Below, one piece after another: positions 16,279-57,886 of a stretch of 64,000 nucleotides of DNA. The position numbers were made by a program, and so were the translations under genes. The DNA is from Pseudonocardia sp. SCN 73-27. Its GTDB lineage: Bacteria > Actinomycetota > Actinomycetes > Mycobacteriales > Pseudonocardiaceae. The stretch spans positions 57,162 to 121,161 of the forward strand of contig MEGH01000038.1 of the NCBI GenBank assembly GCA_001725415.1. The letters are read 5' to 3'. The number at the start of each line of letters is the position of its first letter. The stretch's first letter is position 1. The notes under the pieces were generated by a model. It saw only the letters and a list, made by a program, of their open reading frames with translations, had not been told where the DNA came from and searched no databases.

Positions 16279-17502
16279 ATGCCCGACGCCCCCGAACAGA
16301 CCGCGATCGGCCCCGACGTCCTGCGTGTCGCTATGGACCACGCCCGTCGCGGGGTGAACCTGCAGGTCGCGCTGCGGGGCGTGCTGGTCGCGTTCGTCGC
16401 GTTGACCGTGGTGTTCGTGCCACCGGCGCGCGACGTGTTCGCGTGCGTGCTCGTCGCCGCCGGGTACGCGCTGTGGGCGCTCGCGGTGTTCCTGTGGACG
16501 CGCGGCGGCAGCGACACCCCGGTCCGGCTGGCCTGGGTCGCGTTGCTGATGGACCTGCTGGTCATCGGCTCGCTGACGATGCTCACCGGGCTCTCCACGC
16601 CGCAGAGCTGGACGTCGGACGTGTTCGCCGCGGGGTTCCTGCTCATCCCGGTGCTCGCGGCGACGCAGTTGCGCGCCACCGTCTGCGCGGCCGTCGCGGG
16701 GGCGACTCTGGCCGTGTTCCTGGTCGCGGCGATCGTGACGCAGGAGGCCAACGCCGAGCCGTGGGGCTCACTGCTGCTGCGGACGATGATCGTCGCCGGG
16801 GTGGGGCTCGGCTGTGTGGGGCTGTCCCGGATCCAGCGCTCCCGCGTCGAGACGATCGGCTCGCTCGTCAACGACCGCACCGACCTGCTCGACCAGCTCA
16901 CCGGCATCGAGGAGCACGAGCGCCGGGCGCTGTCGGAGGCGCTGCACGACGGTGCGCTGCAGTACGTCCTGGCCGCCCGCCAGGACCTGGAGGACGCCCG
17001 CGACACCGGCGACGCGGCGTCGTTCGACCGGATCGAGGAGGCGCTGCTGGAGTCGTCGCGGCTGCTGCGGACCACCGTCTCCGAGCTGCACCCGGCCGTC
17101 CTCGACCGGGCGGGGCTGACGGCGGCACTCGGCGATCTCGTCCGCACCGCGGCGGGCCGCGCCGGGTTCGTCGGGGAGGTGTCGACGGACGGCTGGCCCG
17201 ACGAGCGCACCCCGCTGGACGGGATTCTCTACCGAACAGCGCGTGAGCTCGTCGGCAACGCGGCGAAGCACGCGTCGGCGTCCACGCTGCGGCTGTCGCT
17301 CACCGGGTCCGACGGGTGTGCACGGCTGGTCGTCGCCGACGACGGCGTCGGCCTGCCCGCCGACGCGATGACCACCAGCCTGCGCCGTGGCCACATCGGA
17401 CTGGCCTCGCACCGGGTGCGCATCGAGGCCGCAGGCGGCACGTTCACGGCCGCCCCCGCGGCGGAGGGGGGCACCGTGGTGGCGGTCCAGCTACCCCTGT
17501 GA
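16279..17502 (+). CDS. Sensor histidine kinase, NarL-system type (system 2)
   Basis: The 407-residue kinase has six hydrophobic segments in residues 30-185, a dimerisation helix with the phospho-accepting His near residue 223 (EEHERRALSEALHDGALQYV) and an HATPase domain (TARELVGNAAKHASASTLRL, VADDGVGLPADA, HIGLASHRVRIEAAGG). The ALHDGALQ motif places it with the DesK/NreB-like HisKA_3 group. It is divergent from response regulator 2. The TGA stop lies within the first four bases of a 40-bp palindrome, so the repeat itself supplies the end of the gene. Confidence 0.92.
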   Translation: MPDAPEQTAIGPDVLRVAMDHARRGVNLQVALRGVLVAFVALTVVFVPPARDVFACVLVAAGYALWALAVFLWTRGGSDTPVRLAWVALLMDLLVIGSLTMLTGLSTPQSWTSDVFAAGFLLIPVLAATQLRATVCAAVAGATLAVFLVAAIVTQEANAEPWGSLLLRTMIVAGVGLGCVGLSRIQRSRVETIGSLVNDRTDLLDQLTGIEEHERRALSEALHDGALQYVLAARQDLEDARDTGDAASFDRIEEALLESSRLLRTTVSELHPAVLDRAGLTAALGDLVRTAAGRAGFVGEVSTDGWPDERTPLDGILYRTARELVGNAAKHASASTLRLSLTGSDGCARLVVADDGVGLPADAMTTSLRRGHIGLASHRVRIEAAGGTFTAAPAAEGGTVVAVQLPL

Positions 17503-17538
17503 GCGGTGATGGTCGCCATGGCGATCATCACCACTCAC
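17499..17538. repeat. 40-bp palindromic element, copy 2
   Basis: Arms GTGAGCGGTGATGGTCGCCA and TGGCGATCATCACCACTCAC have two mismatches, both transitions that keep G-U pairing on one strand. Its second to fourth bases are the TGA stop of the system 2 kinase. Confidence 0.88.
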
Positions 17539-21966: not shown

Positions 21967-22192
21967 GTGCTGCTCCCGGGGTCGCGGCAGCCCTGTGCCG
22001 CAGCACGTCCGACGCTAGGTCGGTGCGTGGCGCAGCGGTGCGGAAACCGTCCGCGCGGGGGCGCGCGACTGTCCGACCGGACGGGCCCCGGTCCGCGCCT
22101 CCGGGTGAGGCTCGTCGCTGTAATCGATATTGACTGTCGTTTTCATCAGCACGTAGCGTCGTCGTCGCAGGAGTCGAGGATGCGAGGGCACG
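21967..22192 (+). promoter_or_regulatory. Divergent intergenic region with AT-rich candidate operator
   Basis: Most is GC-rich, but 22121-22147 (TAATCGATATTGACTGTCGTTTTCATCA region) is conspicuously AT-rich and lies about 50 bases before the transporter start. It is a likely promoter and could hold a site for a metal-responsive repressor of the Fur type. No riboswitch is recognisable. Confidence 0.4.
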
Positions 22193-23254
22193 GTGACGTC
22201 AGCAACGACCGCTCTGGTCGGTCCGCGGTTCGCCGCGCCGGGCCGATTCGCGCTGCTCTGCGGCGGGTTGGCCGTCGCGACGGTCGTCGTAGTGGTGCTC
22301 GGCGTCGTGATCGGCGCGGTGCCGGTGCCGCCGGGGACTGTGGTCGGCGTCGTCGCGCACCGGCTCGGGCTGCCCGTCGCCGCGCCCGACCCGGTGGCCG
22401 ACCAGATCGTCTGGGCCTCCCGGCTCCCGCGCGTGCTGTTGGCGGTGCTGGTCGGCGCGGGGCTGGCGGTCGCGGGGGCGGTCATCCAGTCGGTCGTGCG
22501 CAACCCGCTCGGCGACCCCTACCTGATCGGCGTCGTCCCCGGGGCCGGGCTGGGCGCGGTCACGGTCATCGTCGCAGGCGGCGCCGCGGTGGGCGGGCTG
22601 TCGCTGTCGGCGGCGGCGTTCGTCGGGGCGCTGCTGGCGTTCGCGGTGACGTTCCTGCTGGGCCGCAAGGACGGGCACTGGCCGCCGACGCGCCTCGTGC
22701 TCGCCGGCGTCGCTGTCGGCTACCTCGTCTCGGCCGTCACCTACTTCCTGCAGACGATCGCGACGCCGACCCAGGTCACCCGCGTCCTGTTCTGGACGCT
22801 CGGCAGCGTCGCGAGCGCCCGCTGGGCCGATCTCGTGCTGCCGGTGATCGTGGTCGTCGCCGCCACCGGGTGGCTGCTGCTGCAGGGCCGCCGGCTCGAC
22901 GCGCTGGCCAACGGCACCGACGTCGCCTCCTCGCTGGGCCTCGCGGTCGGCCGGTTCCAGCTGCAGTTGATGCTCGTCGTGGCGTTGCTGACGGGCACGC
23001 TCGTCGCAGTCTCGGGCGGGATCCTGTTCGTGGGGCTGGTGATCCCGCACGTCGCGCGGCTGCTCGTCGGGGCGGGCAACCGGCGAGTGCTGGTCGGGGC
23101 GGTGCTGCTGGGGGCGGTGTTGCTGCCGCTGGCCGACCTCGCCGCCCGCACCGTCCGCGCCCCCGTCGAGCTGCCGATCGGCATCGTGACCGCCGCCGTC
23201 GGCGCGCCGTTCTTTCTGTGGCTGCTGCGGTCCTCGGGCAAGGGGGCGCGCTGA
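22193..23254 (+). CDS. FecCD/BtuC-type ABC transporter permease
   Basis: The 353-residue permease has about ten membrane segments and the family signatures SRLPRVLLAVLVGAGLAVAG, QSVVRNPLGDPYLIGVVPGAGLGA, and the C-terminal GGILFVGLVIPHVARLLVGA that contacts the ATPase. Such permeases import iron-siderophores, haem or cobalamin as homodimers with one ATPase and one lipoprotein. The start is the GTG at 22193. The stop overlaps the ATPase start (TGATG). The three following genes complete the importer and add an exporter. Confidence 0.95.
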   Translation: MTSATTALVGPRFAAPGRFALLCGGLAVATVVVVVLGVVIGAVPVPPGTVVGVVAHRLGLPVAAPDPVADQIVWASRLPRVLLAVLVGAGLAVAGAVIQSVVRNPLGDPYLIGVVPGAGLGAVTVIVAGGAAVGGLSLSAAAFVGALLAFAVTFLLGRKDGHWPPTRLVLAGVAVGYLVSAVTYFLQTIATPTQVTRVLFWTLGSVASARWADLVLPVIVVVAATGWLLLQGRRLDALANGTDVASSLGLAVGRFQLQLMLVVALLTGTLVAVSGGILFVGLVIPHVARLLVGAGNRRVLVGAVLLGAVLLPLADLAARTVRAPVELPIGIVTAAVGAPFFLWLLRSSGKGAR

Positions 23255-24081
23255 TGCGGGTCGAGGCCGAGGGCGTCGACGTCGAGATCGCCGGGCGGAC
23301 GATCGTCGCGGGGGCGGTGCTGCGCGCGGAGCCCGGGACCGTCGTGGGGCTGTTGGGGCCCAACGGGTCCGGCAAGACGACGCTGCTGCGCACCGTCCAC
23401 CGGGCGTTGCGCCCGCACGCCGGGACCGTCCACGTCGGGGGCGACGACGTGTGGCGGCTCGCCCCCAGGACCGCGGCGCGGCGGACCGCCGTCGTCATGC
23501 AGGACGACCCGACCGACTTCGAGTTCACGGTCCGCGAGGTCGTCGAGCTCGGCCGGGTGCCGCACCAGGGCCTGCTCTCGCGCGATCCCGCCGCCGACGC
23601 CGCGATCGTCGCCGACGCCATGCTCACCGCTCGGGTCGACGGCCTGGCCGACCGGCTCGTCAGCACCCTGTCCGGAGGTGAGCGGCAACGGGTGTTCCTC
23701 GCCCGCGCGCTCGCCCAGTCGACGCCCGTCCTCGTCCTCGACGAGCCGACCAACCATCTCGACGTCCGCGCGCAGGTCGAGCTGCTCGAACTGCTGCGCG
23801 GGCTGGGCGTCACCGTCGTCGCCGCGCTGCACGACTTCAACCTCGCAGCCGCCTACTGCGACGACGTCGTCGTCATGCGCGACGGCCGCGTCGTCGCCCA
23901 CGGCCCGATGGCCGACGTCCTCGTCCCCGACCTGGTGTCGCGGGTCTACGGCGTCGCCGTCGCGCGTGGGACCAACCCGCTGACGGGCCGCCCGTCGTTC
24001 ACGTTCGCCCCCCTTCCCCAGCTCGAGGAGAACCCGTGTCCGTCCCCCGCCTCGCCGTTGCAGCCGTCGCCGCTGCCCTGA
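23254..24081 (+). CDS. FecE/BtuD-type ABC transporter ATPase
   Basis: The 275-residue ATPase has Walker A (GLLGPNGSGKTTLLRTVHRA), a Q-loop (VVMQDDPTDFEFTVREVVEL), signature LSGGERQRVFLARALAQ, Walker B (VLVLDEPTNHLDV) and the switch His (VAALHDFNLAA). It energises the FecCD permease. The C-terminal 15 codons overlap the start of the lipoprotein gene by 46 bases in another frame, so its tail (PLPQLEENPCPSPASPLQPS) is probably not functionally constrained. Confidence 0.95.
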   Translation: MRVEAEGVDVEIAGRTIVAGAVLRAEPGTVVGLLGPNGSGKTTLLRTVHRALRPHAGTVHVGGDDVWRLAPRTAARRTAVVMQDDPTDFEFTVREVVELGRVPHQGLLSRDPAADAAIVADAMLTARVDGLADRLVSTLSGGERQRVFLARALAQSTPVLVLDEPTNHLDVRAQVELLELLRGLGVTVVAALHDFNLAAAYCDDVVVMRDGRVVAHGPMADVLVPDLVSRVYGVAVARGTNPLTGRPSFTFAPLPQLEENPCPSPASPLQPSPLP

Positions 24082-24986
24082 CGCTCGCCGCGTGCGGCAG
24101 CGCCCCCGCCGCGGGCCCTGCCGCCGCGACCGGTGAGGGCTTCCCGGTGTCGGTCACCCGCTGTGGCCACGAGCAGACCTTCGTCGCGCCGCCCGAGCGC
24201 GTCGTCCTCGGCTGGCCGACGACCCAGCGCACCCTCGCCGCGCTCGGTGTCGCCGACCGTGTCACCGGATACGTCAGCGGCGCGCTCGCGCCGATGCCCG
24301 CCGGCTCGACCGCGCAGGAGGTGTCGCCCGACTTCAAGCCCGCCAAGGAAGCCGTCCTCGCCGCCCGGCCCGGGCTGTTCCTGGCCAACGACGAGAACCA
24401 GATCTCCGGCGCCGAGGGCACCGCGAGCTGGGCCGACCTCGACGCCGCCGGCGGTCGCGGGTTCGTGCTCGGCGGGTACTGCCTCGACGCGCCCGCCCCC
24501 GACACCCTCGACGCCGTCTACACCGACATCCGCGACCTCGGTTCGATCTTCGGTGTCCGCGACCGGGCCGACCAGGTCGTCACCGACCTGCAGCGCCGGG
24601 TCACCACCGCCGCGGCGAAGGGCGGCGGGGCACGGGTCGCGGTCGTGCAGGTCTACGACGGCAAGGTCTACGCGCTCGCCGGCTCGTACTACAACGCGAT
24701 CGTCGCCGGTGCCGGCATGACCAACGTGTTCGCCGGGCTCGGCCAGAACTTCGCCGAGATCAGCGCCGAGCAGGTCCTCACCTCGACGCCCGACGCGATC
24801 ATCGCCGTCCACGACGACCCCGCCGGTGCCGACGCCGCCGTCGCCGCCGCACGTGAGGCCTTCGCGTCGACCCCGGCTGTGGCCGCGGGGAAGGTGTCGG
24901 CGATGTCGAGCGTCGACATCAGCGGTGGCGGCGTGAACATCGTCGACCTCGTCGAGCAGGCGGCCACCGCGGTCCACGGCCCGTGA
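24036..24986 (+). CDS. FecB-type substrate-binding lipoprotein
   Basis: The 316-residue lipoprotein has a signal peptide ending in the lipobox LTLAAC (Cys20). The periplasmic-binding type III fold follows: RVVLGWPTTQRTLAALGVADRVTGY, then LFLANDENQISG, and the C-terminal lobe (VAVVQVYDGKVYALAGSYYN). It would capture the chelated metal or vitamin outside the membrane for the FecCD system. Start GTG 24036 lies within the ATPase gene. The stop overlaps the exporter start (GTGA). The ligand cannot be assigned. Confidence 0.93.
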   Translation: MSVPRLAVAAVAAALTLAACGSAPAAGPAAATGEGFPVSVTRCGHEQTFVAPPERVVLGWPTTQRTLAALGVADRVTGYVSGALAPMPAGSTAQEVSPDFKPAKEAVLAARPGLFLANDENQISGAEGTASWADLDAAGGRGFVLGGYCLDAPAPDTLDAVYTDIRDLGSIFGVRDRADQVVTDLQRRVTTAAAKGGGARVAVVQVYDGKVYALAGSYYNAIVAGAGMTNVFAGLGQNFAEISAEQVLTSTPDAIIAVHDDPAGADAAVAAAREAFASTPAVAAGKVSAMSSVDISGGGVNIVDLVEQAATAVHGP

Positions 24987-26191
24987 CGGGCACCCGGTCG
25001 CTGCTGGCGGCCAACCCGTCGTTCCGGCTGTGGCTGGCCTCCGACGTCGTGCGGACGCTCGGGTTCGCCGTCAGCACCGTCGTCCTGCCGATCCTGGTCT
25101 ACGAACGCACCGGCTCCCCGGTGCAGACCGGGTTGCTCGCGGCGCTGCGGGTCGTCCCCTATCTCGCGGTCGGGCTCCTGGCCGGGGCGATCGCCGACCG
25201 GGTCGACCGCAAACGCCTCCTGATCGCGACGACGGTCGTCGAAGGCCTGGCAATGGCCACGATCCCGCTGGTCGACGCTGTCACCCCGGTCCCGCTGATC
25301 CAGATCTACCTGGTGACGCTGATCGGGTCGACGGCATTCGTGTTCGCCGACGCCGCCGCCTTCGGCGCGCTCCCGACGATCGTCGGCCCCGACCGGCTCG
25401 CCTCCGCCAACGGGACGCTGCTCGCCGCGGTGTCGGCGGCGATGATCGGCGGACCCGCGATCGGATCGCTGCTGGTCGCGACGATCGGCGCCGCCCCCGC
25501 GATCTGGGTCGACGTCGGCGGGTTCGCCCTCGGCGCACTGCTGCTCATGGGCGTGCGTGGGGAGTTCTGCGAACCCCGCACGTCGACGACGTTGCGCGCC
25601 CACGCCGTCGCCGGCCTGCGGTTCGTGGTGTCGGACCGGACGTTGTGCGTGCTGCTGGTCGCCGGGTTCGCGCAGTCGCTCGCCATCGGCGCAGTCGCCG
25701 GTCAGCTCGTCGTGTTCGCGGTCGAGGGCCTCGACATCCCGGAGATCGACGCCCGCGTCGGCTGGCTGTTCTCCGCCGGATCGGTGGGGACGCTGCTGGC
25801 CGGGGTGGTGTTCGGCCGGCTCTTCGACGTCGGCCGCGTCCGCCTGCTGACGCCCGCCGCGCTCCTCGCCGGGGCCGGGTCGCTGGCGCTGCTCGCCGCC
25901 GCGGGCGGGATTTGGGTCGCCGCCGTTGGTTACCTGCTGTTCGGGCTGGCGACGCAGGTCGCGATCAACACCGGCATCACCTACCGCCAGCTCGTCAGCC
26001 CGCCGGGGCTGCGATCGTCGGTCAACGTGATCGGCCGCATGGTGGCCTGGGGCGGCAACCCCTTCGGCGCCATGGTCGCCGGCTTCGTCGCCGCCGCGGC
26101 CGGGGTGCGCACGGCGTTCTGGGCGGGTGTCGTCGTTCTCGCGGTGACGGCCCTCGTCGCAGCCCTGACGATCCCGCGCAAGCGCCCGTGA
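24983..26191 (+). CDS. Major facilitator superfamily transporter (EntS-like)
   Basis: The 402-residue carrier has 12 predicted membrane segments and the MFS loop motif GAIADRVDRKRLLI between segments 2 and 3. The overall pattern (VLPILVYERTGSPVQTGLLAALRVVPY) resembles enterobactin exporter-like proteins. Coupling by GTGA to an iron/cobalamin-type importer suggests siderophore or metallophore export, but this is context-based. Its TGA stop is supplied by the first bases of a 40-bp palindrome. Confidence 0.88.
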   Translation: MTGTRSLLAANPSFRLWLASDVVRTLGFAVSTVVLPILVYERTGSPVQTGLLAALRVVPYLAVGLLAGAIADRVDRKRLLIATTVVEGLAMATIPLVDAVTPVPLIQIYLVTLIGSTAFVFADAAAFGALPTIVGPDRLASANGTLLAAVSAAMIGGPAIGSLLVATIGAAPAIWVDVGGFALGALLLMGVRGEFCEPRTSTTLRAHAVAGLRFVVSDRTLCVLLVAGFAQSLAIGAVAGQLVVFAVEGLDIPEIDARVGWLFSAGSVGTLLAGVVFGRLFDVGRVRLLTPAALLAGAGSLALLAAAGGIWVAAVGYLLFGLATQVAINTGITYRQLVSPPGLRSSVNVIGRMVAWGGNPFGAMVAGFVAAAAGVRTAFWAGVVVLAVTALVAALTIPRKRP

Positions 26192-26227
26192 GTGGCTGTA
26201 TTGGCCATAGCCAATGCAGCCACTCAC
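26188..26227. repeat. 40-bp palindromic element, copy 3
   Basis: Arms GTGAGTGGCTGTATTGGCCA and TAGCCAATGCAGCCACTCAC have two transition mismatches. Bases 2-4 form the stop codon of the MFS gene. A second copy lies 44 bases further on. Confidence 0.88.
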
Positions 26228-26271: not shown

Positions 26272-26311
26272 GTGAGCGGTAATAGTCGCTATAGCGACTA
26301 TTACCGCTCAC
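26272..26311. repeat. 40-bp palindromic element, copy 4
   Basis: Perfect 20-bp arms (GTGAGCGGTAATAGTCGCTA and complement). It lies 5 bases beyond the 3' end of the minus-strand YcaO gene, so each of the two convergent operons has its own copy. Confidence 0.92.
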
Positions 26312-26316
26312 GAGGG

Positions 26317-27630
26317 TCAGTGGGGGAGCGGGGTGCGCGGGACGGGGAACGGGGAGGTGCGGCGGGCCGCGGCGAGGCGGGTCCCGCCCAGGAACGGCAG
26401 TCCCTGCGGGGCGTTCGAGTACAGGCCCGGCACCAGCACCCGGACGACCGTGAAGCCCAGCGGCGCGACGTCGGGGGTCGTCACGTCGACGGCGACGACC
26501 CGGTGCCCGGCCAACGTCAGGACGTCGACGAGGTCCCCGGTGCCGCGGACCGGCGCGGCGAGCGACTCCAGCGCGACTTGGTCCGTCGTCCGCTCCGACA
26601 GCTCGGTCTCGAACTCGGCGCGCACTGCCGGGTCGAGGTGGAGCTGCAGGTGGCAGGCGTAGTCGACGACGTCGGAGCGGTCCGGCAGGTACGCCGAGCC
26701 GTAGGCGCGGTCGGCCCGCCACTGCTTGAGCGGGCTGTGCGGGTGGGCGGCTGCGGCGGCGAAGGCCCCGTGGGGGTCGTCGTAGTCGGCGAGGACGAGC
26801 TGAAGCTGCAGGGCCTCGGCGAACGCCTTCACCGCGGCGGTGACCGGGTCGGGGTCGACGCCGGTGCCGAGGCTGAGCAGGCCGGTCGTGGCGTCGGTGA
26901 CCAGCGCGGCGACGACGGGCAGCCCGAACGGCGAAGTGAGCGCGACGAACCGCGTCGTGAGCAGTCCGTCCGGCCCAGCGGCGAAGGAGACCAGCCATGC
27001 GGGCGGGTCGAGCGCACGGACGCCGAGGCCGCCGTACCAGGACAGAGTCATGGCGTCGCGTTCCACGACCTCGCGCAGCCCGCCCCACACGGCGAAGCCG
27101 CGGTCGGGGCCGGCGGCCAGCCCGGCCTGAATGACGGGGTTGGTCAGCGGACCGCGCTGGGCGCCGACGGGTGAGTGGTACGACGGCCACACCGGACCGG
27201 CGGGGACGAGGACCTCGGAGTCGTCGACGAGATCGCGGCCGACCACCCACTCCATCTCCAGGTCGGTGGTCATCGGGACTGCGGGGAAGCCGGGCGTCGC
27301 GTACTGCGCGTCGGAGAAGAACGCGAAGGTCGTGGGGTCGAGGGCGTTGCCGCCCAATGCTTTGTGGCTCGCCCGGACCAGTCCGGGCGGGACGAGGTTG
27401 CCGCAGTAGCGCTCGACGGCCTCGCCGATCGCCGCGGCCCGTACCGCCGCGGGGTCGGCGAACGCATAGCCGGCCCCGGCCGGGTCGGAGGCCCAGCCGC
27501 CGAAGCGGGAGGTGTCGGCGATGCGGGAGGTCGTGAGCGCGAACGACGTCGGGAAGTGCGCGGGGATGGCGGCGGGGTCGAGGGCGCGGACGATCCCGGT
27601 CCGCGGATCGGCCAGCAAATCGGGGGACAC
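26317..27630 (-). CDS. YcaO-domain RiPP maturase, enzyme 1
   Basis: This 437-residue YcaO protein is the last gene of the RiPP operon. YcaO enzymes phosphorylate peptide backbone amides with ATP to form azolines, thioamides or amidines. It shows the ATP-site motifs AAIGEAVERYCGN (near residue 70) and REVVERDAMTL, then KAFAEALQLQL, and ends in Pro-rich PFPVPRTPLPH, similar to the proline-rich C-termini of azoline-forming YcaOs. GTG start at 27630, preceded by GAGAGG. It lies 10 bases after a second YcaO gene, with which it shares clear similarity (for example GTRL near both C-termini). No flavin dehydrogenase is encoded nearby. Confidence 0.9.
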   Translation of the reverse strand: MSPDLLADPRTGIVRALDPAAIPAHFPTSFALTTSRIADTSRFGGWASDPAGAGYAFADPAAVRAAAIGEAVERYCGNLVPPGLVRASHKALGGNALDPTTFAFFSDAQYATPGFPAVPMTTDLEMEWVVGRDLVDDSEVLVPAGPVWPSYHSPVGAQRGPLTNPVIQAGLAAGPDRGFAVWGGLREVVERDAMTLSWYGGLGVRALDPPAWLVSFAAGPDGLLTTRFVALTSPFGLPVVAALVTDATTGLLSLGTGVDPDPVTAAVKAFAEALQLQLVLADYDDPHGAFAAAAAHPHSPLKQWRADRAYGSAYLPDRSDVVDYACHLQLHLDPAVRAEFETELSERTTDQVALESLAAPVRGTGDLVDVLTLAGHRVVAVDVTTPDVAPLGFTVVRVLVPGLYSNAPQGLPFLGGTRLAAARRTSPFPVPRTPLPH

Positions 27631-27640
27631 GGGTCGCCTC

Positions 27641-28996
27641 TCAGGCCAGGGGCAGGGGATGTGCGACGAGGTCGGCCTCGTCGCGGGGTGGGTCGGGCCA
27701 GCCGAGCCGGGCGGGGACGTCGAACAGCCGGGTGCCGCCGTGCAGCGGGAACGCGGGCGGCCCGTTACCGACGAGCCCGGCCGCCACGACCCGGACGACG
27801 CACCAGCCGGCGGCCGCGACGTCGGGTGTCGTCAGGTCGACCGAGACCGTGCGGATGCCGGCGGTGGCGAGTCGTCGAAGGTAGGTGGCCCGGGGGTCGG
27901 CGACCGCAGCGACATCGGCGAGCTTGTGGGAGGGGACAGGTCGCAGCCGGGACAGTGGCGTCCCCTGCATCCGCGGGTCCAGGTAGAGCTGGGCGACGGC
28001 GGGCAGGTCGGTCAGCGCCCGGAACCCGGGGCCGGCGTCGTCGAGGTACCGGCGGTCCGCGCGGAACGGCAGGTAGGCGTGGGCCTCGATGGTCCCGGAC
28101 GCGACCGCGGCCCACGTGAGGCTGGCGGGATCGGCGAGGTCGCGGGCGTGGCGCAGCAGCCCGAGCGCCTCGACGAGGGCCTTGCCCGCGGCCCGCGCCG
28201 GATCGGCCCGGCACGCGCTGCCGAACCCCACGAACCCGTCCTGCTCCACCAACGCAGCGACCACCGGAACCTCGAACTCCGACGGCACCGCGACGAGATG
28301 CACCTGCAACGGCCGGTCGCCCGCGGGACGGCCGAGGGCCCCGGTGACGCGGCCGTCGTCGTCGAGACCCGTCGCCGGGGCGCCGGAGGCCCACCAGATG
28401 CCGGTGGCGTCGCGTTCGAGCAGCTCCTCGAGGGCGGACCGTTCGGCCGCCGCGCGGTCGGTGCCTGCGGCGATGCCGGAGTACATGAGCGAGTGCGTCG
28501 GCGGCTCGTCGGCGCGGGTGCCGTGGACGTAGTCGAGATGGGCGAGCGACGCGGGCACCCACGTCGCGTCGCCGGTGTGGAGATCGGTGCCGCGCACCCA
28601 CCCGACGCGCAGGTCCCGGGTGAACGGCACGAACGGGAACCCGTGTTGGCTGTACTGCCGCGCCGAGTAGAGCGCGAGTGTCGACGGATCGAGTGCGTCG
28701 TCGCCGGCCTCGATCAGCTCGTCGTACGACGCGCGGCGCAGCACGTCGGGCACGGCGTTGCCGCAGTAGCGCTCGATGGCCTCGCCGATCGCAGCGGCGC
28801 GGGCGGCGTGCTCGTCGCCGAGGCTGGCGCCGAAGCCGGTGGCGTCAGCGCGCCACGTCGTGAAGCGGTCGGTGCGGCCGACGAGCGCGCCGTACGACAC
28901 GAGCCCCGACGGCAGCCCGGACGGCACGGGCAGCCGGTCGACGTCGACGAGCAGCCCGGTGCGGCGGTCGGTGAGGGGGTGGGCGAGGCCGGTCAC
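27641..28996 (-). CDS. YcaO-domain RiPP maturase, enzyme 2
   Basis: This 451-residue second YcaO has AAIGEAIERYCGNAVPD (near residue 80), SALEELLERDATGIWW and a C-terminus ending HPLPLA. Compared with enzyme 1, the KAFAEALQLQ segment reads KALVEALGLLR here, so the Gln is not conserved and ATP handling may differ. Its GTG start at 28996 overlaps the hydrolase stop (GTGA). Two YcaO genes in one operon also occur in bottromycin pathways; here they accompany an E1-like partner, which usually presents the substrate to a YcaO enzyme. Whether both are catalytic is unknown. Confidence 0.9.
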   Translation of the reverse strand: MTGLAHPLTDRRTGLLVDVDRLPVPSGLPSGLVSYGALVGRTDRFTTWRADATGFGASLGDEHAARAAAIGEAIERYCGNAVPDVLRRASYDELIEAGDDALDPSTLALYSARQYSQHGFPFVPFTRDLRVGWVRGTDLHTGDATWVPASLAHLDYVHGTRADEPPTHSLMYSGIAAGTDRAAAERSALEELLERDATGIWWASGAPATGLDDDGRVTGALGRPAGDRPLQVHLVAVPSEFEVPVVAALVEQDGFVGFGSACRADPARAAGKALVEALGLLRHARDLADPASLTWAAVASGTIEAHAYLPFRADRRYLDDAGPGFRALTDLPAVAQLYLDPRMQGTPLSRLRPVPSHKLADVAAVADPRATYLRRLATAGIRTVSVDLTTPDVAAAGWCVVRVVAAGLVGNGPPAFPLHGGTRLFDVPARLGWPDPPRDEADLVAHPLPLA

Positions 28997-30540
28997 CGGA
29001 CCTCCCCGACGGGCAGGGTCAGCGACGACTTTCCGGTGTGGACGGTGTGCGTGCCGGCGCGCAGGTGGACGGCGTAGTGGCGGTCCTCGCCGGTGCCGGG
29101 GTTGCGGGCCAGGAACGGGAAGTCCGATCCCGTGACCTCCAGGACCAGTCGCGACCCGGTGCCGACGACGAGCGCCGCCGCCCCCAGCGGCACCCGGATC
29201 CGGCCGTGGCGTGTGGCGACCGCGGACCCGCGGGTGACCTCCAGCAGCCTGCCGTCGGGCCGGTGCTCCAGCACGCGGACGATCCAGTCGGCGCTGTCGG
29301 TGGTCGTCGACACCGTGAGGTCGACGTGCCCGGCGCCGTCGACGCGCAGCGGTTCGGGCAGCGGGCCGGTGGCGAAGCGGGCGGCGTCGCGGCGGGCGAG
29401 CAGCGGGGCGCGGTCGCCGGCGGGCAGCGTCGAGGGAAAGGGATCGGCGGGGTCGTGGGTGAACATGACGACCCCCGGTTCGGCCTCGCGGTCCAGCCCG
29501 CCGTCGGGCCCGAGGTGCCAGGTCCGTTGCAGCGCAGCGGGTGGCCACGTCGGCGTCGTCTCCCAGCGATCCGCGCCGGGGACGAACACCCGTGCGGCCC
29601 CGGGCGCGGTGGGATCGTCGAGGGCAGCGCGCAGCCAGTCGACGAACAACGACCCGAGCGGCAGTCGCGACGCCGGACCGTGCTCCCGGGCGCCGACCGC
29701 GGTCGAGCCGTCCATCCCGAGGTCGTGCCCCCACGGACCGACGACCAGATCGCGGCGCGGTCGCGGCGACACCGCGGAACCGGTGCGGGAGAACAGGTCC
29801 AGCACCTCGTCGACCAGCAGGTCGTACCAGCCTCCGACGTGCAGCGACGGCGCCGCCAGCCCCCGGACCTCGGCATCCGTGACCGCCTCCGGCGGGGAGT
29901 CCGACGGGTGCAGTACCAGGGTGTCGGCCCAGTGCGGGAGCCTCGCCCCGAGCAGGTCGGCGATCCCGGCGACGGGCAGATGCGCCAGCAGGTCGGGATG
30001 CTCGGCGAACACGATCCGGCGCAGGCCCTCCCGGCTGGTGCGGGAGTCGGCGCGGTCGAGCCACCACCCGGCGTGCTCGGCAAGGCGCAGGATGCCGGAG
30101 GGCTCGAACTTGGTGCGGTGCAGGCCCATCGACGGTCCGAGGCTCAGCACCGCCGACACCGGCCGTTCCACCGCCGCCGCCCACGCCGTGTACCCGGCGT
30201 ACGAGCCGCCCAGGACGGCGATCCGCCCGTCGGACCACGGCTGGTCGCGGACCCAGTCGAGCAGCGCGGCACCGTCGGCACGCTCGTTGCGGTACGGCGT
30301 CCACGTGCCCGCGGAGTCGTAGCGACCGCGGACGTCCTGCACGACGAACCCGAACCCCCGCGAGCGCCACGCCCGGCCCTCGGCCAGGTGCGTGGAACGC
30401 CCGTACGGCGTCCGGGTCACGACGACCGGCACCGGCCACTCCGCCGCCGGCGGGACGTGCGCGTCGAGGACGAGCTCGGCGCCGTCGGGGGCGGCGACGG
30501 GGAGGTTTGCCCAGGTCGTGAGCTCTGCCAGGGTCTTCAC
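28993..30540 (-). CDS. CocE/NonD family (peptidase S15-like) hydrolase in RiPP operon
   Basis: The 515-residue alpha/beta hydrolase of the X-Pro dipeptidyl-peptidase/cocaine-esterase type has VVVTRTPYGRSTHLAEGRAW, the nucleophile elbow AVLGGSYAGYTAWAAA, GGWYDLLVDEVLDLF and the catalytic-His region GPWGHDLGMDG. A C-terminal jelly-roll domain follows (ADWIVRVLEHRPDGRLLEV). I chose GTG 30540 (VKTLAELTTWANL), which overlaps the E1-like stop (GTGA); a longer in-frame extension overlaps that gene and looks non-coding. The family cleaves after X-Pro or hydrolyses esters. In this operon it may trim the precursor, which contains GP and NP sites, but that is inference. Confidence 0.88.
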   Translation of the reverse strand: MKTLAELTTWANLPVAAPDGAELVLDAHVPPAAEWPVPVVVTRTPYGRSTHLAEGRAWRSRGFGFVVQDVRGRYDSAGTWTPYRNERADGAALLDWVRDQPWSDGRIAVLGGSYAGYTAWAAAVERPVSAVLSLGPSMGLHRTKFEPSGILRLAEHAGWWLDRADSRTSREGLRRIVFAEHPDLLAHLPVAGIADLLGARLPHWADTLVLHPSDSPPEAVTDAEVRGLAAPSLHVGGWYDLLVDEVLDLFSRTGSAVSPRPRRDLVVGPWGHDLGMDGSTAVGAREHGPASRLPLGSLFVDWLRAALDDPTAPGAARVFVPGADRWETTPTWPPAALQRTWHLGPDGGLDREAEPGVVMFTHDPADPFPSTLPAGDRAPLLARRDAARFATGPLPEPLRVDGAGHVDLTVSTTTDSADWIVRVLEHRPDGRLLEVTRGSAVATRHGRIRVPLGAAALVVGTGSRLVLEVTGSDFPFLARNPGTGEDRHYAVHLRAGTHTVHTGKSSLTLPVGEVR

Positions 30541-31280
30541 GACGCGAGTGCCGGCAGTGTCAGGACGGGGTGTCGGGTCACGCGCAGCGGGTCCGTCGCG
30601 ACCTCGGTCTGGTACCCGACGGGCCCGGCGACGTCGGTGCGCCACCACGTCGCGATCTCGTCGGCGACAAGTCCGGCGACGACCGCCGCGACCCCGGGAC
30701 CCGGGTCCGGCAACGGCGGCGCAGACGCAGGGTCGTCGAGCCACGCCCAGTGATGGGTCAGCTCGTCGGGGATACCGCTGGCGGCGAGGCGACGGCCCCG
30801 CAGGTCGGTGTAGGAGGGCGACTGTCCCGGCACGGTCAACGGCCCGACCAGCCACGACGACCCCTCCGCGTGGCAGCGGTGCCAGGCGACACTCGCTGCG
30901 GCGCAGGCGTCGTCGAGCGCGCGCCAGCGGGAGTCGGGCAGCCAGCCGGCGCAGTCGACGAGGACGTCGACCTCGTCGAGTTCGCCGTTGCGCCGGGGAG
31001 ACCAGGACGCGAGGACGGCCGCGAGCGCGTCGGCGACAGGCCCGTCGCCATGGAGAAGGACGCGCGGAGGTGTGCGCACGGGCGGCGGGGGCGCCAGCAG
31101 ACCCTGGGCCTCGAACGCCTGGCGCAGTGAGTCGATGTCGGCGTTCCCGGGGGCCGCGCTCTGGAAGGCGCGCAACGCCTCCTCGGGGCCGTTGATGCGC
31201 AGGTACCGGTCGCCGGGCAGCGCGCAGCGCCAGCCGTCGGGCGTCGGATAGAGGTGATGGCCGGGGCGCAGCGTGGTCAC
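30537..31280 (-). CDS. E1-like/Ocin-ThiF-type leader-peptide-binding protein
   Basis: The 247-residue protein matches the short cyclodehydratase partner proteins (TOMM precursor leader-peptide-binding, McbB/Ocin-ThiF-like). Its N-terminal region (LRPGHHLYPTPDGWRCALPG, LRINGPEEALRAFQ) looks like an RRE-type winged helix, and a Rossmann-like part follows (RVLLHGDGPVADALAAVLAS). No ATP-binding or zinc-binding ThiF motif is visible. It would bind the precursor leader and present it to the YcaO enzymes. GTG start at 31280 with GGAGG 8 bases upstream. It follows the precursor gene by 72 bases, which contain a hairpin. Confidence 0.85.
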   Translation of the reverse strand: MTTLRPGHHLYPTPDGWRCALPGDRYLRINGPEEALRAFQSAAPGNADIDSLRQAFEAQGLLAPPPPVRTPPRVLLHGDGPVADALAAVLASWSPRRNGELDEVDVLVDCAGWLPDSRWRALDDACAAASVAWHRCHAEGSSWLVGPLTVPGQSPSYTDLRGRRLAASGIPDELTHHWAWLDDPASAPPLPDPGPGVAAVVAGLVADEIATWWRTDVAGPVGYQTEVATDPLRVTRHPVLTLPALAS

Positions 31281-31301
31281 GGGGTCCTCCGGAAGGCGAG
31301 G

Positions 31302-31333
31302 GCCCTGGCGCCCGCGGGTGCGGACGCCAGGGC
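31302..31333 (-). terminator. Hairpin between precursor and maturase genes (possible attenuator)
   Basis: GCCCTGGCG and CGCCAGGGC arms (9 bp, perfect) flank a 14-base interior containing CCCGCGGG. Partial termination here would give more precursor mRNA than enzyme mRNA, a common arrangement in RiPP operons. No T-run follows. Confidence 0.5.
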
Positions 31334-31352
31334 GGTCACGTTCGGTCGGTGA

Positions 31353-31541
31353 TCAGCCGGAGAACGAGAAGGGGTTGTGCACCAGGGCGTTGGTCGTCGG
31401 ACCCTGCAGCGCCGACAGGGCCGGGAGCTCGGCGACCTCGTCGAACGAGAACGGGTTGTGCACCAGCGCGTTGGTCGTCGGGCCCTGGAGAGCCGACAGC
31501 GCGGGGAGCTCGGCGATCTCGTCGAAGGTGACGTTGTCCAT
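31353..31541 (-). CDS. RiPP precursor peptide with two tandem 27-residue repeats
   Basis: The 62-residue product is MDNVT, then FDEIAELPALSALQGPTTNA with LVHNPFS, then the same unit again with Val for Ile, then FSG. Within each unit an acidic-hydrophobic half (FDE[I/V]AELPALSALQG), suitable as a leader recognised by an RRE domain, precedes PTTNALVHNPFS, which offers Thr, Ser, Asn, His and Pro for modification but no Cys. The two 81-bp units differ at eight positions, seven of them silent. ATG 31541 is preceded by GGAGG at good spacing. It leads the operon ahead of the E1-like protein, S15 hydrolase and two YcaOs. I know no named family with this sequence. Confidence 0.85.
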   Translation of the reverse strand: MDNVTFDEIAELPALSALQGPTTNALVHNPFSFDEVAELPALSALQGPTTNALVHNPFSFSG

Positions 31542-31561
31542 CCGGAACCTCCATCTAGCGA

Positions 31562-31582
31562 ACATGGAAACCGTTTCCATGT
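31562..31582 (-). promoter_or_regulatory. 21-bp palindromic operator upstream of the RiPP operon
   Basis: ACATGGAAAC, a central base, then GTTTCCATGT: perfect 10-bp arms, 20 bases upstream of the precursor ATG. The GGAAACnGTTTCC core resembles LacI/GalR-family operators. No LacI-type gene is in the window, so the regulator would be encoded elsewhere. Confidence 0.6.
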
Positions 31583-31887: not shown

Positions 31888-31927
31888 GTGAGTGGCAATA
31901 GTCGCTATAGCGACTATTGCCACTCAC
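31888..31927. repeat. 40-bp palindromic element, copy 5
   Basis: Perfect 20-bp arms (GTGAGTGGCAATAGTCGCTA and complement), 7 bases beyond the stop of the minus-strand VWA gene. Confidence 0.92.
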
Positions 31928-31934
31928 AGGGGAG

Positions 31935-33479
31935 TCAGCGGCCGATCAGTTCGCCCGCCATCTCGTGGGCGGTGGTCTCCAGGCCGGTGAGGTCGCGGAC
32001 CACGCGGACGCGGTCGCAGTGCTCGGCGTAGGCAGGCAGGTCGCAGCGGCCCAGGCCCCAGGAGTAGCGGGGCTCCGGGGTCAGCCAGATGGTCTCCCGC
32101 GCCCGCCGCGTGATCTCGACGAACGCCTCCATGTTGGGGTCGTTCCCGTTGCCGCGGCCGTCGCCCAGGATCAGCACGGTCGAGCGCCGGTTGACCGCCG
32201 ACGAGTGCTCCTCCAGGAACTGCCCGAACGCGAGCCCGTAGTGGGAGTTGGCGTCGACGTCGAGGACGTCCCCGCCGAAGACGAGCCCGAGGGCCTGCTC
32301 GACGGGGTGGTCGGCGAACAGGTCGGTGATCTCGACGAGGTCGGACACGAACGCGAACGACCGGACCTGCCCGAACAGGTCCTGCAGCCCGTGCACGAGG
32401 TGCAGCGTGAACCGGGCGGTGGCGCGCACCGACAGCGAGACGTCGGCCAGTACGACGAGCCGCGGCTTGTCCTCGGCGCGTTTGACGGTCACCGGGTTGA
32501 AGGGGATGCCGTCGAAGCGCATGTTGCGACGCATGGTCCGGCCCGAGTCGACCCGGCCCTGCGCGGCGACGCGGCGGCGGTGCGTCAGCGCCCCGTGCAG
32601 CGTCTTGGCCAGGCGGCGCAACGAGTCCTCGAGCTGCATGCGCTCGGTCTCGGTGGCGCGGTCGACCTCGGCGGCGCGGACGGCGTCCTCGTGCCCGGCG
32701 TCGACGATCCGCTGTTCCAGCTCCAGCAGCTGCTCGAGGTGTTTCTTGATGGCCTCGGGCAGGTTGGCCAGCACCCCGGCGAGCCTGCGCCGCAACGCCG
32801 CCGCGTCGTCCTCGGTGCCCGTGGTCGCGTCGAGCTCGTCCTCGGTGGCGGTGAGCCAACCGAGCAGCGCCTCCTGCTGGGCGACGGAGAGGTCGGCGTC
32901 GACCTTGGTGCCGGTGGCCTGCGAGATGTCGCCGGGCAGGCCGGCGCCCGACAGCCGGTCCGTCTCGATCTGGACGCGGTTGCCCTCGGTGAGTTGCGAC
33001 GCCTGGTCGTCCTTCGAGAAGACGATCTCGTCGGTCATCGCGGCGAGGTCGATCTTGTTGGCCTCCTGGTGCAGGTTGTACTGCTGCGCAAGGTCTTCCG
33101 GGTCGAAGTAGTCACGGATGTCGACGGGTTTGCCGTGGCTGTGGCCCTGCTGCGGGGTCTGGCCGGGGTCCTCGGAGAGCGTGAAGTCGTCGAGGGTCCC
33201 GTCGTCGGAGAGATCGCCGTGGCCGTGCCCGTGACCGTGGCCGTGCTCCTCCTCGCCCACCTTGACCAGCGCGAAGTAGGCGGAGAACACCTCGTCGAAC
33301 ACCTCGTCGTCGCGGCGGTCCTTCACCAGCGCGACCCGCAGCGCCTCCCGCAGCAGCCCGCGGTCGGCGAGGATGCCGGGCTGGGCGGCGCAGCGCATCG
33401 CGTCGAGGGCTTCGGACACCGAGATCCGCACGCTCCGCAGCCGCAGCAGCCGGACGAACCGGTGGATCGCGGCCTCCAT
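31935..33479 (-). CDS. VWA-domain (CoxE-like) protein with His-rich tract
   Basis: The 514-residue protein has a von Willebrand factor A domain in its C-terminal third, with the MIDAS metal site DVSLS (LVVLADVSLSVRATARF), and an N-terminal helical part. It matches the CoxE-like VWA partners of MoxR ATPases. A conspicuous HGHGHGHGHGD run near residue 79 and another HSHG could bind Ni, Zn or Cu. It is coupled to the MoxR gene (TGATG overlap). MoxR-VWA pairs act as chaperones that mature or insert metal cofactors. The nearest client candidates are the methanol dehydrogenase next door and the two molybdenum hydroxylases. Confidence 0.88.
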   Translation of the reverse strand: MEAAIHRFVRLLRLRSVRISVSEALDAMRCAAQPGILADRGLLREALRVALVKDRRDDEVFDEVFSAYFALVKVGEEEHGHGHGHGHGDLSDDGTLDDFTLSEDPGQTPQQGHSHGKPVDIRDYFDPEDLAQQYNLHQEANKIDLAAMTDEIVFSKDDQASQLTEGNRVQIETDRLSGAGLPGDISQATGTKVDADLSVAQQEALLGWLTATEDELDATTGTEDDAAALRRRLAGVLANLPEAIKKHLEQLLELEQRIVDAGHEDAVRAAEVDRATETERMQLEDSLRRLAKTLHGALTHRRRVAAQGRVDSGRTMRRNMRFDGIPFNPVTVKRAEDKPRLVVLADVSLSVRATARFTLHLVHGLQDLFGQVRSFAFVSDLVEITDLFADHPVEQALGLVFGGDVLDVDANSHYGLAFGQFLEEHSSAVNRRSTVLILGDGRGNGNDPNMEAFVEITRRARETIWLTPEPRYSWGLGRCDLPAYAEHCDRVRVVRDLTGLETTAHEMAGELIGR

Positions 33480-34681
33480 CAGAACGGCCGCTTGCGACGC
33501 CCGCCCGACCCGAACGACCGCGAGCCCTGGCCCGGTGTCACGGTGCGGACCGGAGTGGGCGTCTGCTGCGTGGCCCCGTGGGTGCCTCCGTACACGCTGC
33601 CGTGGCGGCCCGCGGTGTCCTTGGCGGCGCGCTTGGCCTTCCCGTCGACGTCACCGTCGTCGTGGTCGTGCTCGCCGCCGTGCCCGTGGTCGTGACCATG
33701 TCCGTGTCCGTGGCCGTGGGCCGGCTCCTCCACCGAGGCGTTCGGGTCGACCAGCCGCGGCAGCGCACCCAGTGCCTTGGTGACGTCCTTGTCGTACTTG
33801 ACGACGACCGACACGGTGTCGGACAGGACCTGCGCGTTGAGCTCGTCGACGCCCAGGACGGCCAGGGTCCGGACCCAGTCGATGGTCTCGGAGATGCTGG
33901 GCGCCTTGCGCAGTTCGAGCTCCCGCAGCCCGCGGACGACGCCGACGAGCTCCTCGGCCAGCGCGTCGGAGAGCCCCGTCTTCTTGCTCTTGACGATCTC
34001 CAGCTCGCGCTCGGCGGCCGGGTAGTCGAGGAACATGTGCAGGCAGCGACGCTTGAGCGCGGCGGCCAGGTCGCGGGTGTTGTTCGAGGTCAGCAGCACG
34101 TAGGGCCGGTTCTCGGCGACGAACGTCCCGACCTCGGGGACGGAGATCTGGAACTCGCCGAGGGTCTCCAGCAGCACGGCCTCCAGGGCCTCGTCGGCGC
34201 GGTCGACCTCGTCGATCAGCAGGACGACGGGCTGCTCGGAGCGGATGGCCTCCAGCAGCGGGCGCGGGGCGAGGAACCGTTCGGAGAAGAACACGCTCTC
34301 CTGGGCGCCGATGCGGTCGACGGCGGCGTGCAGGTCGGGGGCGTCGGCGACGACCTGGCCGATCTTCTCCCGCAGGATCTGGGTGTACAGCAGTTGCTTG
34401 CCGTAGTCCCACTCGTAGAGCGCCTTGGTCTCGTCCTGGCCCTCGTAGCACTGCAACCGCAGCAGCCGCCGGCCCGTCGCGAGCGCGAGGACCTTGGCCA
34501 GCTCGGTCTTTCCGACGCCCGCAGGGCCTTCGAGCAGCAGCGGCTTGTCGAGCCGCGTCAGCAGGAAGACGGTGGTGGCGAGCCGGGTGTCGGCGATGTA
34601 GCCCTGGTCGCGCAGGGCGGCGATGACGTCGTCGACGGAGTCGAACGTGGGGGCCGGGTCGAGGTCGGACTCAGTGCTCAC
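33479..34681 (-). CDS. MoxR family AAA+ ATPase with His-rich C-terminal tail
   Basis: The 400-residue MoxR ATPase has Walker A (LLLEGPAGVGKTELAKVLA), Walker B (PVVLLIDEVDRADEALEAVL), sensor 1 (YVLLTSNNTRDLAAALKRR) and an arginine finger region. After residue 320 a tail of about 80 residues contains an alternating His/Gly/Asp stretch and ends in basic GGRRKRPF. The GTG at 34681 is preceded by AAGGAG and gives VSTESDLDPAP. It is coupled to the downstream VWA gene. The metal-binding tails on both partners are unusual and suggest metal delivery. The gene is 3' of methanol dehydrogenase, separated from it by a 40-bp palindrome. Confidence 0.92.
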   Translation of the reverse strand: MSTESDLDPAPTFDSVDDVIAALRDQGYIADTRLATTVFLLTRLDKPLLLEGPAGVGKTELAKVLALATGRRLLRLQCYEGQDETKALYEWDYGKQLLYTQILREKIGQVVADAPDLHAAVDRIGAQESVFFSERFLAPRPLLEAIRSEQPVVLLIDEVDRADEALEAVLLETLGEFQISVPEVGTFVAENRPYVLLTSNNTRDLAAALKRRCLHMFLDYPAAERELEIVKSKKTGLSDALAEELVGVVRGLRELELRKAPSISETIDWVRTLAVLGVDELNAQVLSDTVSVVVKYDKDVTKALGALPRLVDPNASVEEPAHGHGHGHGHDHGHGGEHDHDDGDVDGKAKRAAKDTAGRHGSVYGGTHGATQQTPTPVRTVTPGQGSRSFGSGGRRKRPF

Positions 34682-34796
34682 GGCCGGGTACTCCTTCCGC
34701 GCGGCTCTCCGGCGAGCCGCGGCAGGTAGCGCGGGCGAGCCCGCCACGCCCCCGGCATGCGCCGGAGTCGCGTGGCGGGCCCGTCGGGAAGAGGTA

Positions 34797-34836
34797 GTGA
34801 GCGGCAATGATCGCTACAGCGACCATTGCCGCTCAC
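34797..34836. repeat. 40-bp palindromic element, copy 6
   Basis: Arms GTGAGCGGCAATGATCGCTA and CAGCGACCATTGCCGCTCAC have two transition mismatches. It lies 4 bases beyond the methanol dehydrogenase stop. Confidence 0.88.
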
Positions 34837-50567: not shown

Positions 50568-50607
50568 GTGAGTGGCGTTATCGGCCATAGCCGGTAACGC
50601 CACTCAC
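50568..50607. repeat. 40-bp palindromic element, copy 8
   Basis: Arms GTGAGTGGCGTTATCGGCCA and TAGCCGGTAACGCCACTCAC have two transition mismatches. It lies between tandem operons, 21 bases before the IclR start. Confidence 0.88.
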
Positions 50608-57846: not shown

Positions 57847-57886
57847 GTGAGTGGCAATAGTCGCTGGAGCGACTATTGCCACTCAC
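57847..57886. repeat. 40-bp palindromic element, copy 9
   Basis: Perfect 19-bp arms (GTGAGTGGCAATAGTCGCT and complement) with GG centre, between the convergent coxG-like and PepSY genes. Confidence 0.92.

What the first reader, a model, noticed from the sequence alone, without database searches (positions are those of the whole stretch)
26317..31582. Undescribed-looking RiPP operon: repeat precursor, E1-like protein, S15 hydrolase and two YcaO enzymes
Seen: a 62-residue two-repeat peptide gene followed by four tightly coupled genes (GTGA overlaps or a 10-base gap) on one strand. Known: YcaO plus E1-like proteins install azolines or related backbone changes, and two YcaOs occur in bottromycin pathways. 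Inference: this set (Cys-free repeat core, short E1-like partner, two YcaOs, CocE/S15-type hydrolase, no flavin dehydrogenase, no dedicated exporter in the operon) does not match any RiPP class I know. The product may carry oxazoline, amidine or another backbone change.
Basis: partly seen in the sequence, partly recalled or inferred. Interest (0 to 1): 0.88.

Follow-up and report, generated by a model that had tools for sequence, protein, structure and literature searches.

The report
Zinc-controlled streptamidine-type peptide gene cluster
The genes make a small modified peptide of an already known family, streptamidine, whose purpose is unknown; they appear to be switched by the cell's zinc sensor and sit beside metal-carrier importer and exporter genes, which suggests the peptide helps the bacterium gather zinc.

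Summary
In detail: a 62-aa two-repeat precursor, E1-like protein, S15/CocE hydrolase and two YcaO proteins on the minus strand. It is not a new RiPP class. The precursor scores 119.6 bits (cut-off 45) against NCBIfam's "streptamidine-related RiPP repeat protein". Its partners resemble AmiB, AmiC and AmiD. Russell et al. 2021 already described a two-YcaO, motif-B subset.

What looks new is regulation. A Zur (zinc repressor) box lies 13-23 bp before the precursor start in 13 of 13 first-examined motif-B loci. A strict box pattern occurs at four places in this 6.95-Mb genome: this operon, type B ribosomal protein L31, a ZnuA-family gene and a TetR gene. Motif-A streptamidine precursors share it: 19 of 21 have a 10-11/11 box, against 0 of 1,047 control windows. 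The 2021 main text does not mention Zur.

Best reading: a zinc-starvation RiPP system, probably a zincophore. Zinc binding is unproven; streptamidine showed none.

The parts
31353..31541 (-). precursor peptide, 62 aa, two copies of the motif-B unit (ending SALQGPTTNALVHNPF)
   Evidence: NCBIfam NF040715 119.6 bits, cut-off 45; homologues in 12 related loci, L003 not counted; 81-nt repeat
30537..31280 (-). short E1-like partner with an RRE-like N-terminus (by secondary structure), AmiB-like
   Evidence: TIGR03882 weak; tblastn 28-32% to the AmiB regions of five motif-A clusters, weak in L077 (E 0.001); Foldseek MccB/TruD/LynD/McbBCD
28993..30540 (-). S15/CocE-type hydrolase, AmiC-like; candidate for trimming the leader
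   Evidence: PF02129, PF08530; cocaine esterase E 1e-38; 30-38% to AmiC regions
27641..28996 (-). YcaO-1, AmiD-like
   Evidence: PF02624, TIGR03604; 35-39% to AmiD; tree
26317..27630 (-). YcaO-2, second YcaO paralogue
   Evidence: PF02624, TIGR03604; one clade of 11 rows, support 100/100
31565..31579 (.). Zur-type box TGGAAACCGTTTCCA, palindrome 23 bp before the precursor start codon
22193..23254 (+). FecCD-family permease, linked importer
   Evidence: PF01032 E 3.5e-87; conserved linkage
23254..24081 (+). ABC ATPase, FecE-like
   Evidence: PF00005
24036..24986 (+). FecB-type substrate-binding protein
   Evidence: PF01497 E 1.4e-16
24983..26191 (+). EntS-like MFS transporter, candidate exporter
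   Evidence: PF07690; TIGR00900 and EntS-type NCBIfam matches, below cut-off; conserved linkage
22131..22145 (+). half-degenerate Zur-like box TGACTGTCGTTTTCA before the FecCD operon
   Evidence: 8 of 10 positions of the published znuA motif; with 31565 one of only two such sites in the window; a degenerate pattern built on it has no other match in the window

Best explanation
A Zur-controlled zinc-acquisition cassette built on a streptamidine-family RiPP. When zinc is plentiful, Zn-Zur occupies the palindrome at 31565 and the weaker box at 22131 and shuts off the peptide operon and the Fec operon. When zinc is scarce, the two-repeat precursor is made and bound by the RRE/E1-like protein. The two YcaOs then act on the backbone: YcaO-1, like AmiD, most likely builds an N-terminal amidine after the S15 hydrolase frees the N-terminus, while YcaO-2 makes a second, unknown change. 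The product leaves through the EntS-like MFS protein, captures zinc and returns through FecB-FecCD-FecE. Shown here: genes, linkage, family membership and box conservation. Inferred: Zur binding, chemistry, transport direction, zinc as ligand. My step confidences: family membership 0.97, Zur control 0.85, zincophore function about 0.5 to 0.6 given Zur control.
For: Family. Box within 150 bp of the precursor in 13 of 13 motif-B loci at 8/10 or better and 10 of 13 at 9/10 or better, against 32 and 7 of 4,179 overlapping control windows, 13-23 bp from the start codon. Own genome: four sites of the strict pattern, none for the reversed control; two of the other three precede type B L31 and a ZnuA-family gene, which are of the kinds known as Zur targets (znuABC and ribosomal-protein paralogues, passages). 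A Zur-type regulator is present (nearest chains 3mwm, E 4e-59, and M. tuberculosis FurB 2o03). In three relatives the box also precedes ZnuA-type genes, type B L31/L33 and an MRF/ZigA-type GTPase. Streptamidine itself: 19 of 21 amiA upstream regions at 10-11/11 against 0 of 1,047 overlapping control windows; 5 of 5 larger clusters have one before amiA, and 3 have a second box upstream of the fec genes. A third precursor type with a HSSNH or HSNNH core sits in the same two-YcaO cassette; 3 of 5 have a box 49-132 bp before it.
Against: Russell et al. detected no zinc or other metal binding by streptamidine and no phenotype of the amiD mutant under metal starvation. The motif-B region matching the streptamidine core (ALQGPT) has no His or Cys. 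Zur also controls genes that are not zinc carriers, such as L31. The window's box is 8/10, and sites of that score number 1.5 on average per shuffled window (31 of 60 shuffles have two or more), so location and conservation carry the argument, not the count. In the E1-profile survey 5 of 8 new precursor-bearing loci passed 8/10, one of them (L091) about 180 bp upstream; the other three have a same-place palindrome with drifted edges, seen only after the fact. Of the third type, L097 has no box near the precursor and L093's is 363 bp away beside the MFS gene. One of three near-identical amiA copies in one genome has no box (L027). L014 and L018 have no good box before their separate fec operon (my own score). 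Of 89 pattern sites in six relatives I inspected 13; the four in the two Frankia-type genomes and one in Streptomyces did not lie at recognised Zur targets.
Confidence: 0.5

Rival explanations
1. A Zur-regulated streptamidine-family RiPP that is not a zincophore: a signal, regulator or weapon deployed when zinc is scarce, with the Fec transporter importing something else or sensing the product.
For: Zur-type boxes as above. Streptamidine showed no metal binding and no antimicrobial activity, and its authors suggested signalling or development. The motif-B core-equivalent lacks His/Cys.
Against: The recurrent link to a metal-complex-type ABC importer and, in the motif-B and third types, an EntS-like MFS. 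Motif-A cores keep His at both ends in the 19 of 19 correctly oriented precursors; other cores are HPTCNH and VHSSNHAT/VHSNNHST.
Confidence: 0.35
2. An iron- or other-metal carrier RiPP controlled by another Fur-family protein that shares the palindrome.
For: The genome has five FUR-family genes, and the importer is of the FecBCDE family typical of siderophores.
Against: The strict pattern in this genome hits type B L31 and a ZnuA-family gene. The motif-A boxes fit the published Zur consensus at 10-11/11.
Confidence: 0.08
3. A new RiPP class unrelated to known ones.
For: I saw no characterised motif-B product in the library listings. The second YcaO and the lack of a recognisable AmiE leave the chemistry uncertain.
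Against: NF040715 match, AmiB/C/D similarity and shared fec genes, prior description of two-YcaO motif-B clusters.
Confidence: 0.04

Closest known systems
Streptamidine (ami) family, Russell et al. 2021, PMC8442711; NCBIfam NF040714/NF040715
   Same: Precursor in register with AmiA, with the ALV motif; AmiB-, AmiC- and AmiD-like proteins in the same order; Fec-type transporter genes (permease matches in 4 of 5 motif-A stretches); Zur-type box before the precursor
   Different: Motif B instead of A, two repeats, core-equivalent ALQGPT instead of HLSATH, second YcaO, one permease gene instead of two, MFS transporter; no AmiE or specific AmiT match found
Two-YcaO motif-B subset (primarily Frankia, Rhodococcus, Clavibacter) of the same paper
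   Same: Motif-B precursor with two YcaO proteins (text); the Frankia-type relatives found here share the cassette
   Different: Product uncharacterised in that paper; its main text contains neither Pseudonocardia nor Zur
Bottromycin pathway
   Same: Two YcaO proteins; an amidine
   Different: Per PMC8442711 both bottromycin YcaOs work without a partner protein; here an E1-like partner is present
Zur-controlled metallophore clusters: coelibactin, [S,S]-EDDS
   Same: Metallophore-type cluster under Zur (passages)
   Different: Not ribosomal peptides; zinc binding by the present product is untested

Membership tests
Streptamidine-family RiPP | Network-1/AmiA-type precursor with ALV motif | tested here: met
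   NF040715 119.6 bits, cut-off 45; gap-free register with AmiA
Streptamidine-family RiPP | YcaO of the single clade described in the paper | tested here: inconclusive
   YcaO-1 is 35-39% identical to AmiD; the tree has no outgroup beyond this family
Streptamidine-family RiPP | AmiB-like E1 protein and AmiC-like hydrolase | tested here: met
   (the paper says many family clusters lack amiB)
Streptamidine-family RiPP | Linked FecBCDE-type importer | tested here: met
Streptamidine (motif A, canonical) | Dehydrogenase AmiE | tested here: not met
   An AmiE-position protein of L075 (weak SagB-type match, below cut-off) finds nothing in the window or 13 relatives at E 1e-5; a very diverged AmiE could escape. 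The paper says many family clusters lack amiE
Streptamidine (motif A, canonical) | ABC transporters AmiT1/T2 | tested here: not met
   One ABC query from L075 gave no window match and, in the motif-B loci, matches only at the fec ATPase position
Streptamidine (motif A, canonical) | HxSA[ST]H core | tested here: not met
   core-equivalent ALQGPT
Streptamidine-family RiPP | Six-membered amidine in the product | not testable with these tools
   needs mass spectrometry and NMR
Bottromycin | YcaOs acting without an E1-like partner | tested here: not met
   E1-like partner encoded and conserved
Zur regulon | Zur-type box at the promoter, shared with known kinds of Zur target of the same genome | tested here: met
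Zur regulon | Zinc-dependent Zur binding and repression | not testable with these tools
   needs gel shift and transcript assay
Zincophore | Secreted product binds zinc and restores uptake | not testable with these tools
   zinc binding was not detected for streptamidine in PMC8442711

The most novel reading that the evidence does not exclude
The whole streptamidine family, reported from over 230 species with no known function, is a zinc-starvation system, and its members are ribosomally made zincophores: small modified peptides exported under Zur control, loaded with zinc and re-imported by dedicated Fec-type transporters. The window's motif-B cluster is a two-YcaO version that makes its zinc ligands by backbone modification, not by His side chains.
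Probability: 0.4. Interest if true: 0.85.

Novelty: new member of a known kind. Interest (0 to 1): 0.6.

Why it matters
Streptamidine-type clusters were reported from over 230 species, yet the 2021 study could not assign a role and detected neither metal binding nor antimicrobial activity. A zinc-repressor-type box before the precursor in most clusters examined tells experimenters when the genes should be on and which metal to test. If the zincophore step holds, it would be a ribosomal, YcaO-based route to zinc scavenging, which none of the listings of my nine library searches showed (three of these listings were cut at 20 titles). If it fails, the family still gains a regulatory assignment that is easy to test.

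Tried and rejected
Rejected: a new RiPP class (NF040715 and Ami similarity); a bottromycin-like pathway (E1-like partner present); 'no exporter' (linked MFS); significance from the mere number of boxes in the window.

Led nowhere: a sequence search of solved structures with the E1-like protein gave only antibody chains; the promoter scan found no sigma-70-like site; NF040715 in 396 genomes spread over the phylum matched only the own genome, and in the own genus 3 of 62. The ABC query is one of several ORFs cut by length, of which three (o13168, o16607 and 'AmiT_a') look like wrong frames and count for nothing.

The two pieces of the L014 YcaO-2 were left out of the tree. In one search two loci (L024, L051) were read on the wrong strand; one search replaces those counts. 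The first upstream scan scored a motif of my own; one search uses the published one.
Full report
WHAT IS THERE. The five genes lie as described on the minus strand: precursor 31353-31541, E1-like 30537-31280, S15/CocE hydrolase 28993-30540, YcaO-1 27641-28996, YcaO-2 26317-27630. The precursor holds two nearly identical 27-residue units (81-nt repeats 90% identical). Both YcaOs match PF02624 at E 3.2e-50 or better and TIGR03604 above cut-off. Residues invariant in all 30 aligned YcaOs include E73, E76, R77, E195 and E277 (numbered one codon before the GTG start of YcaO-1), so neither looks decayed (that these are ATP-site residues is recalled, not tested). The E1-like protein has only a weak profile match, but its model (pLDDT 73.7, pTM 0.65) matches MccB, TruD, LynD and the McbBCD complex.

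FAMILY. NCBIfam NF040715, 'streptamidine-related RiPP repeat protein', matches the precursor at 119.6 bits against a cut-off of 45. Of Russell et al. 2021 (PMC8442711) I read parts 1-3 of the five parts of its main section and passages, no supplement. [quoted passage not shown] In five motif-A stretches fetched here, the E1-like, S15 and YcaO-1 proteins find similar regions in the same order (28-32%, 30-38% and 35-39% identity; the E1-like match in L077 is only E 0.001). The motif-B unit and AmiA align without a gap, which puts ALQGPT opposite the streptamidine core HLSATH (inference by register).

THE CASSETTE IS LARGER. One pattern scan of the genome collection with YcaO-1 gave 13 loci. Eleven carry a motif-B precursor, E1-like, S15 and both YcaOs (L012's YcaO-2 runs to its contig end). 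Of these 11, nine carry FecCD permease, ATPase, binding protein and MFS (L007, L009 to L011, L013 to L015, L018, L019); L008 has all four with the MFS cut by the contig end; L012 ends before them. The other two loci, L016 and L017, have one YcaO, no S15 match and a different 35-aa precursor, and no box near it. The window's copies of the transporter genes are at 22193-26191. S15 is split by a frame change in L014 and L018 (coordinates). The window's genus is probably Pseudonocardia: a genome of the same genus has a contig of the same length as one of Pseudonocardia sp. N23.

THE ZUR BOX. A 15-bp palindrome, TGGAAACCGTTTCCA, lies 23 bp before the precursor start. The published actinobacterial znuA motif is taaTGaNAANNNTTNtCANta and the S. 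coelicolor consensus tGaNNatSatNNtCa (passages of PMC5472717). On the ten fixed inner positions of the former, all 13 motif-B loci (window plus 12) reach 8 or more within 150 bp and 10 reach 9 or more, while 32 and 7 of 4,179 overlapping control windows from the 12 loci do. Spacing to the start codon is 13-23 bp. The loci are related, so they are not 13 independent tests, but the box sequences differ while the palindrome stays.

OWN GENOME. The pattern TGRNAAYNRTTNYCA occurs at four places in 6.95 Mb and its reversed control at none. One is this operon. One lies 40 bp before type B L31 (NF002462, 124.9 bits, cut-off 86). One lies before a ZnuA-family gene (PF01297, E 3.5e-51), followed by an ABC ATPase named from its sequence. 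The fourth, TGGTAACTGTTACCA, sits before a TetR-family gene. I chose the pattern after seeing the box, so the operon's own hit is expected; the other three are the test. A Zur-type regulator is present (nearest solved chains 3mwm at E 4e-59, recalled as S. coelicolor Zur, and 2o03, M. tuberculosis FurB). In the window only two sites reach 8/10, and they precede the two operons of the cassette, although shuffles give 1.5 such sites on average.

OTHER GENOMES. A looser pattern gave 89 sites in six relatives (16 for the reversed control; the match list was cut). I picked 13 strong-looking sites in 12 stretches. Two in Pseudonocardia sp. N23 precede a ZnuA-type and a type B L31 gene (L063, L064). 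Of those in Acrocarpospora pleiomorpha, one lies between type B L31/L33 and an MRF/ZigA-type GTPase (L067), one before ZnuA (L068), two before transporter-associated surface proteins (L066). In Streptomyces antibioticus one precedes ZnuA (L073) and one a NikA/CntA-like binding protein (L065). The remaining five (L069 to L072, L074) are not explained.

STREPTAMIDINE ITSELF. NF040714 found motif-A precursors in 18 of 150 genomes of one genus and in 2 of 396 across the phylum, one genome shared. Of the 21 amiA copies, 20 have a 9/11 or better and 19 a 10/11 or better box within 150 bp; 2 and 0 of 1,047 overlapping control windows do. The exception below 9 is L027. In the five larger stretches all amiA genes have a box; L076, L078 and L079 have a second one, which in L076 and L078 lies just before a lipoprotein gene that looks like FecB (by eye) and in L079 about 1.2 kb before the first permease match. 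The paper's main text does not contain the word Zur.

A SURVEY WITH THE E1-LIKE PROFILE. 24 of 394 genomes of the class matched: the own genome, three repeats of known loci, eight new loci with a recognised precursor, five of a third type, and seven weak matches without a recognised precursor. Of the eight, five pass 8/10; in L088 to L090 a palindrome with altered edges sits at the same place. The third type (L093 to L097) has a roughly 31-aa precursor with a VHSSNHAT or VHSNNHST core; L094 to L096 have a box of 9-10/10 at 49-132 bp, L093 one at 363 bp beside the MFS gene, L097 none near, though its cluster has one by the MFS match (L112). Three of these clusters read at length carry E1-like, S15, two YcaOs, fec genes and a partial MFS match. 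L098, with HPTCNH, has a 10/10 box and one YcaO.

MECHANISM. Zur control follows from the above at about 0.85. Amidine formation by YcaO-1 with the E1-like partner after leader removal by the hydrolase is inferred from the streptamidine gene deletions and their reading by the authors. The role of YcaO-2 is open. Export by the MFS protein and re-import by FecBCD are inferred from family and linkage. That the ligand is zinc is inferred from regulation. Against it stand the negative metal-binding and starvation results for streptamidine and the lack of His/Cys in the motif-B core-equivalent.

NOVELTY. The operon is a new member of a known family. The Zur link did not appear in the listings of nine searches of the open-access library (some listings cut at 20 titles) nor in the passages I read of PMC5472717, PMC12161575, PMC8000910 and PMC10920908. 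Closed papers were not searched, and genome-mining servers that scan for Zur sites may already flag it (recalled).

Noticed in passing
17499-17538, 26188-26227, 26272-26311, 31888-31927, 34797-34836, 41129-41168, 50568-50607, 57847-57886: Eight copies of a 40-bp perfect or near-perfect palindrome, GTGAGNGG...CCNCTCAC, whose two arms change together; none in 100 shuffles. Several abut gene ends. The inner 20-mer ATAGTCGCTATAGCGACTAT occurs at six places in the genome. Possibly terminators or a small palindromic repeat family.
   Followed up: partly
L093-L097 (L109, L111, L112 for larger stretches): A third precursor type of this family, about 31 aa, ending in AWR/VWR with a VHSSNHAT/VHSNNHST core, in clusters with two YcaOs; L112 shows a weak third YcaO match.
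   Followed up: partly
L016:9142-9249, L017:9144-9251: A 35-aa precursor, MAHPTFEELAES/ETS-type with one Cys, next to an E1-like protein, one YcaO and fec genes, without S15 and without a Zur-type box nearby; its regulation is unknown.
   Followed up: no
L065:1001-1015: In Streptomyces antibioticus a strong Zur-type box precedes a NikA/CntA-like binding protein, perhaps part of another metallophore uptake system.
   Followed up: no
window 31935-34807: Upstream of the precursor lie a VWA protein (CoxE/MadC-like, below the NCBIfam cut-off) and an AAA ATPase that looks MoxR-like by eye; both have HGHGHGHG stretches. The VWA gene is also beside the cluster in Pseudonocardia sp. N23.
   Followed up: no
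L014, L018: The S15 hydrolase match is split across frames in two Frankia-type loci, by mutation or sequencing error.
   Followed up: no
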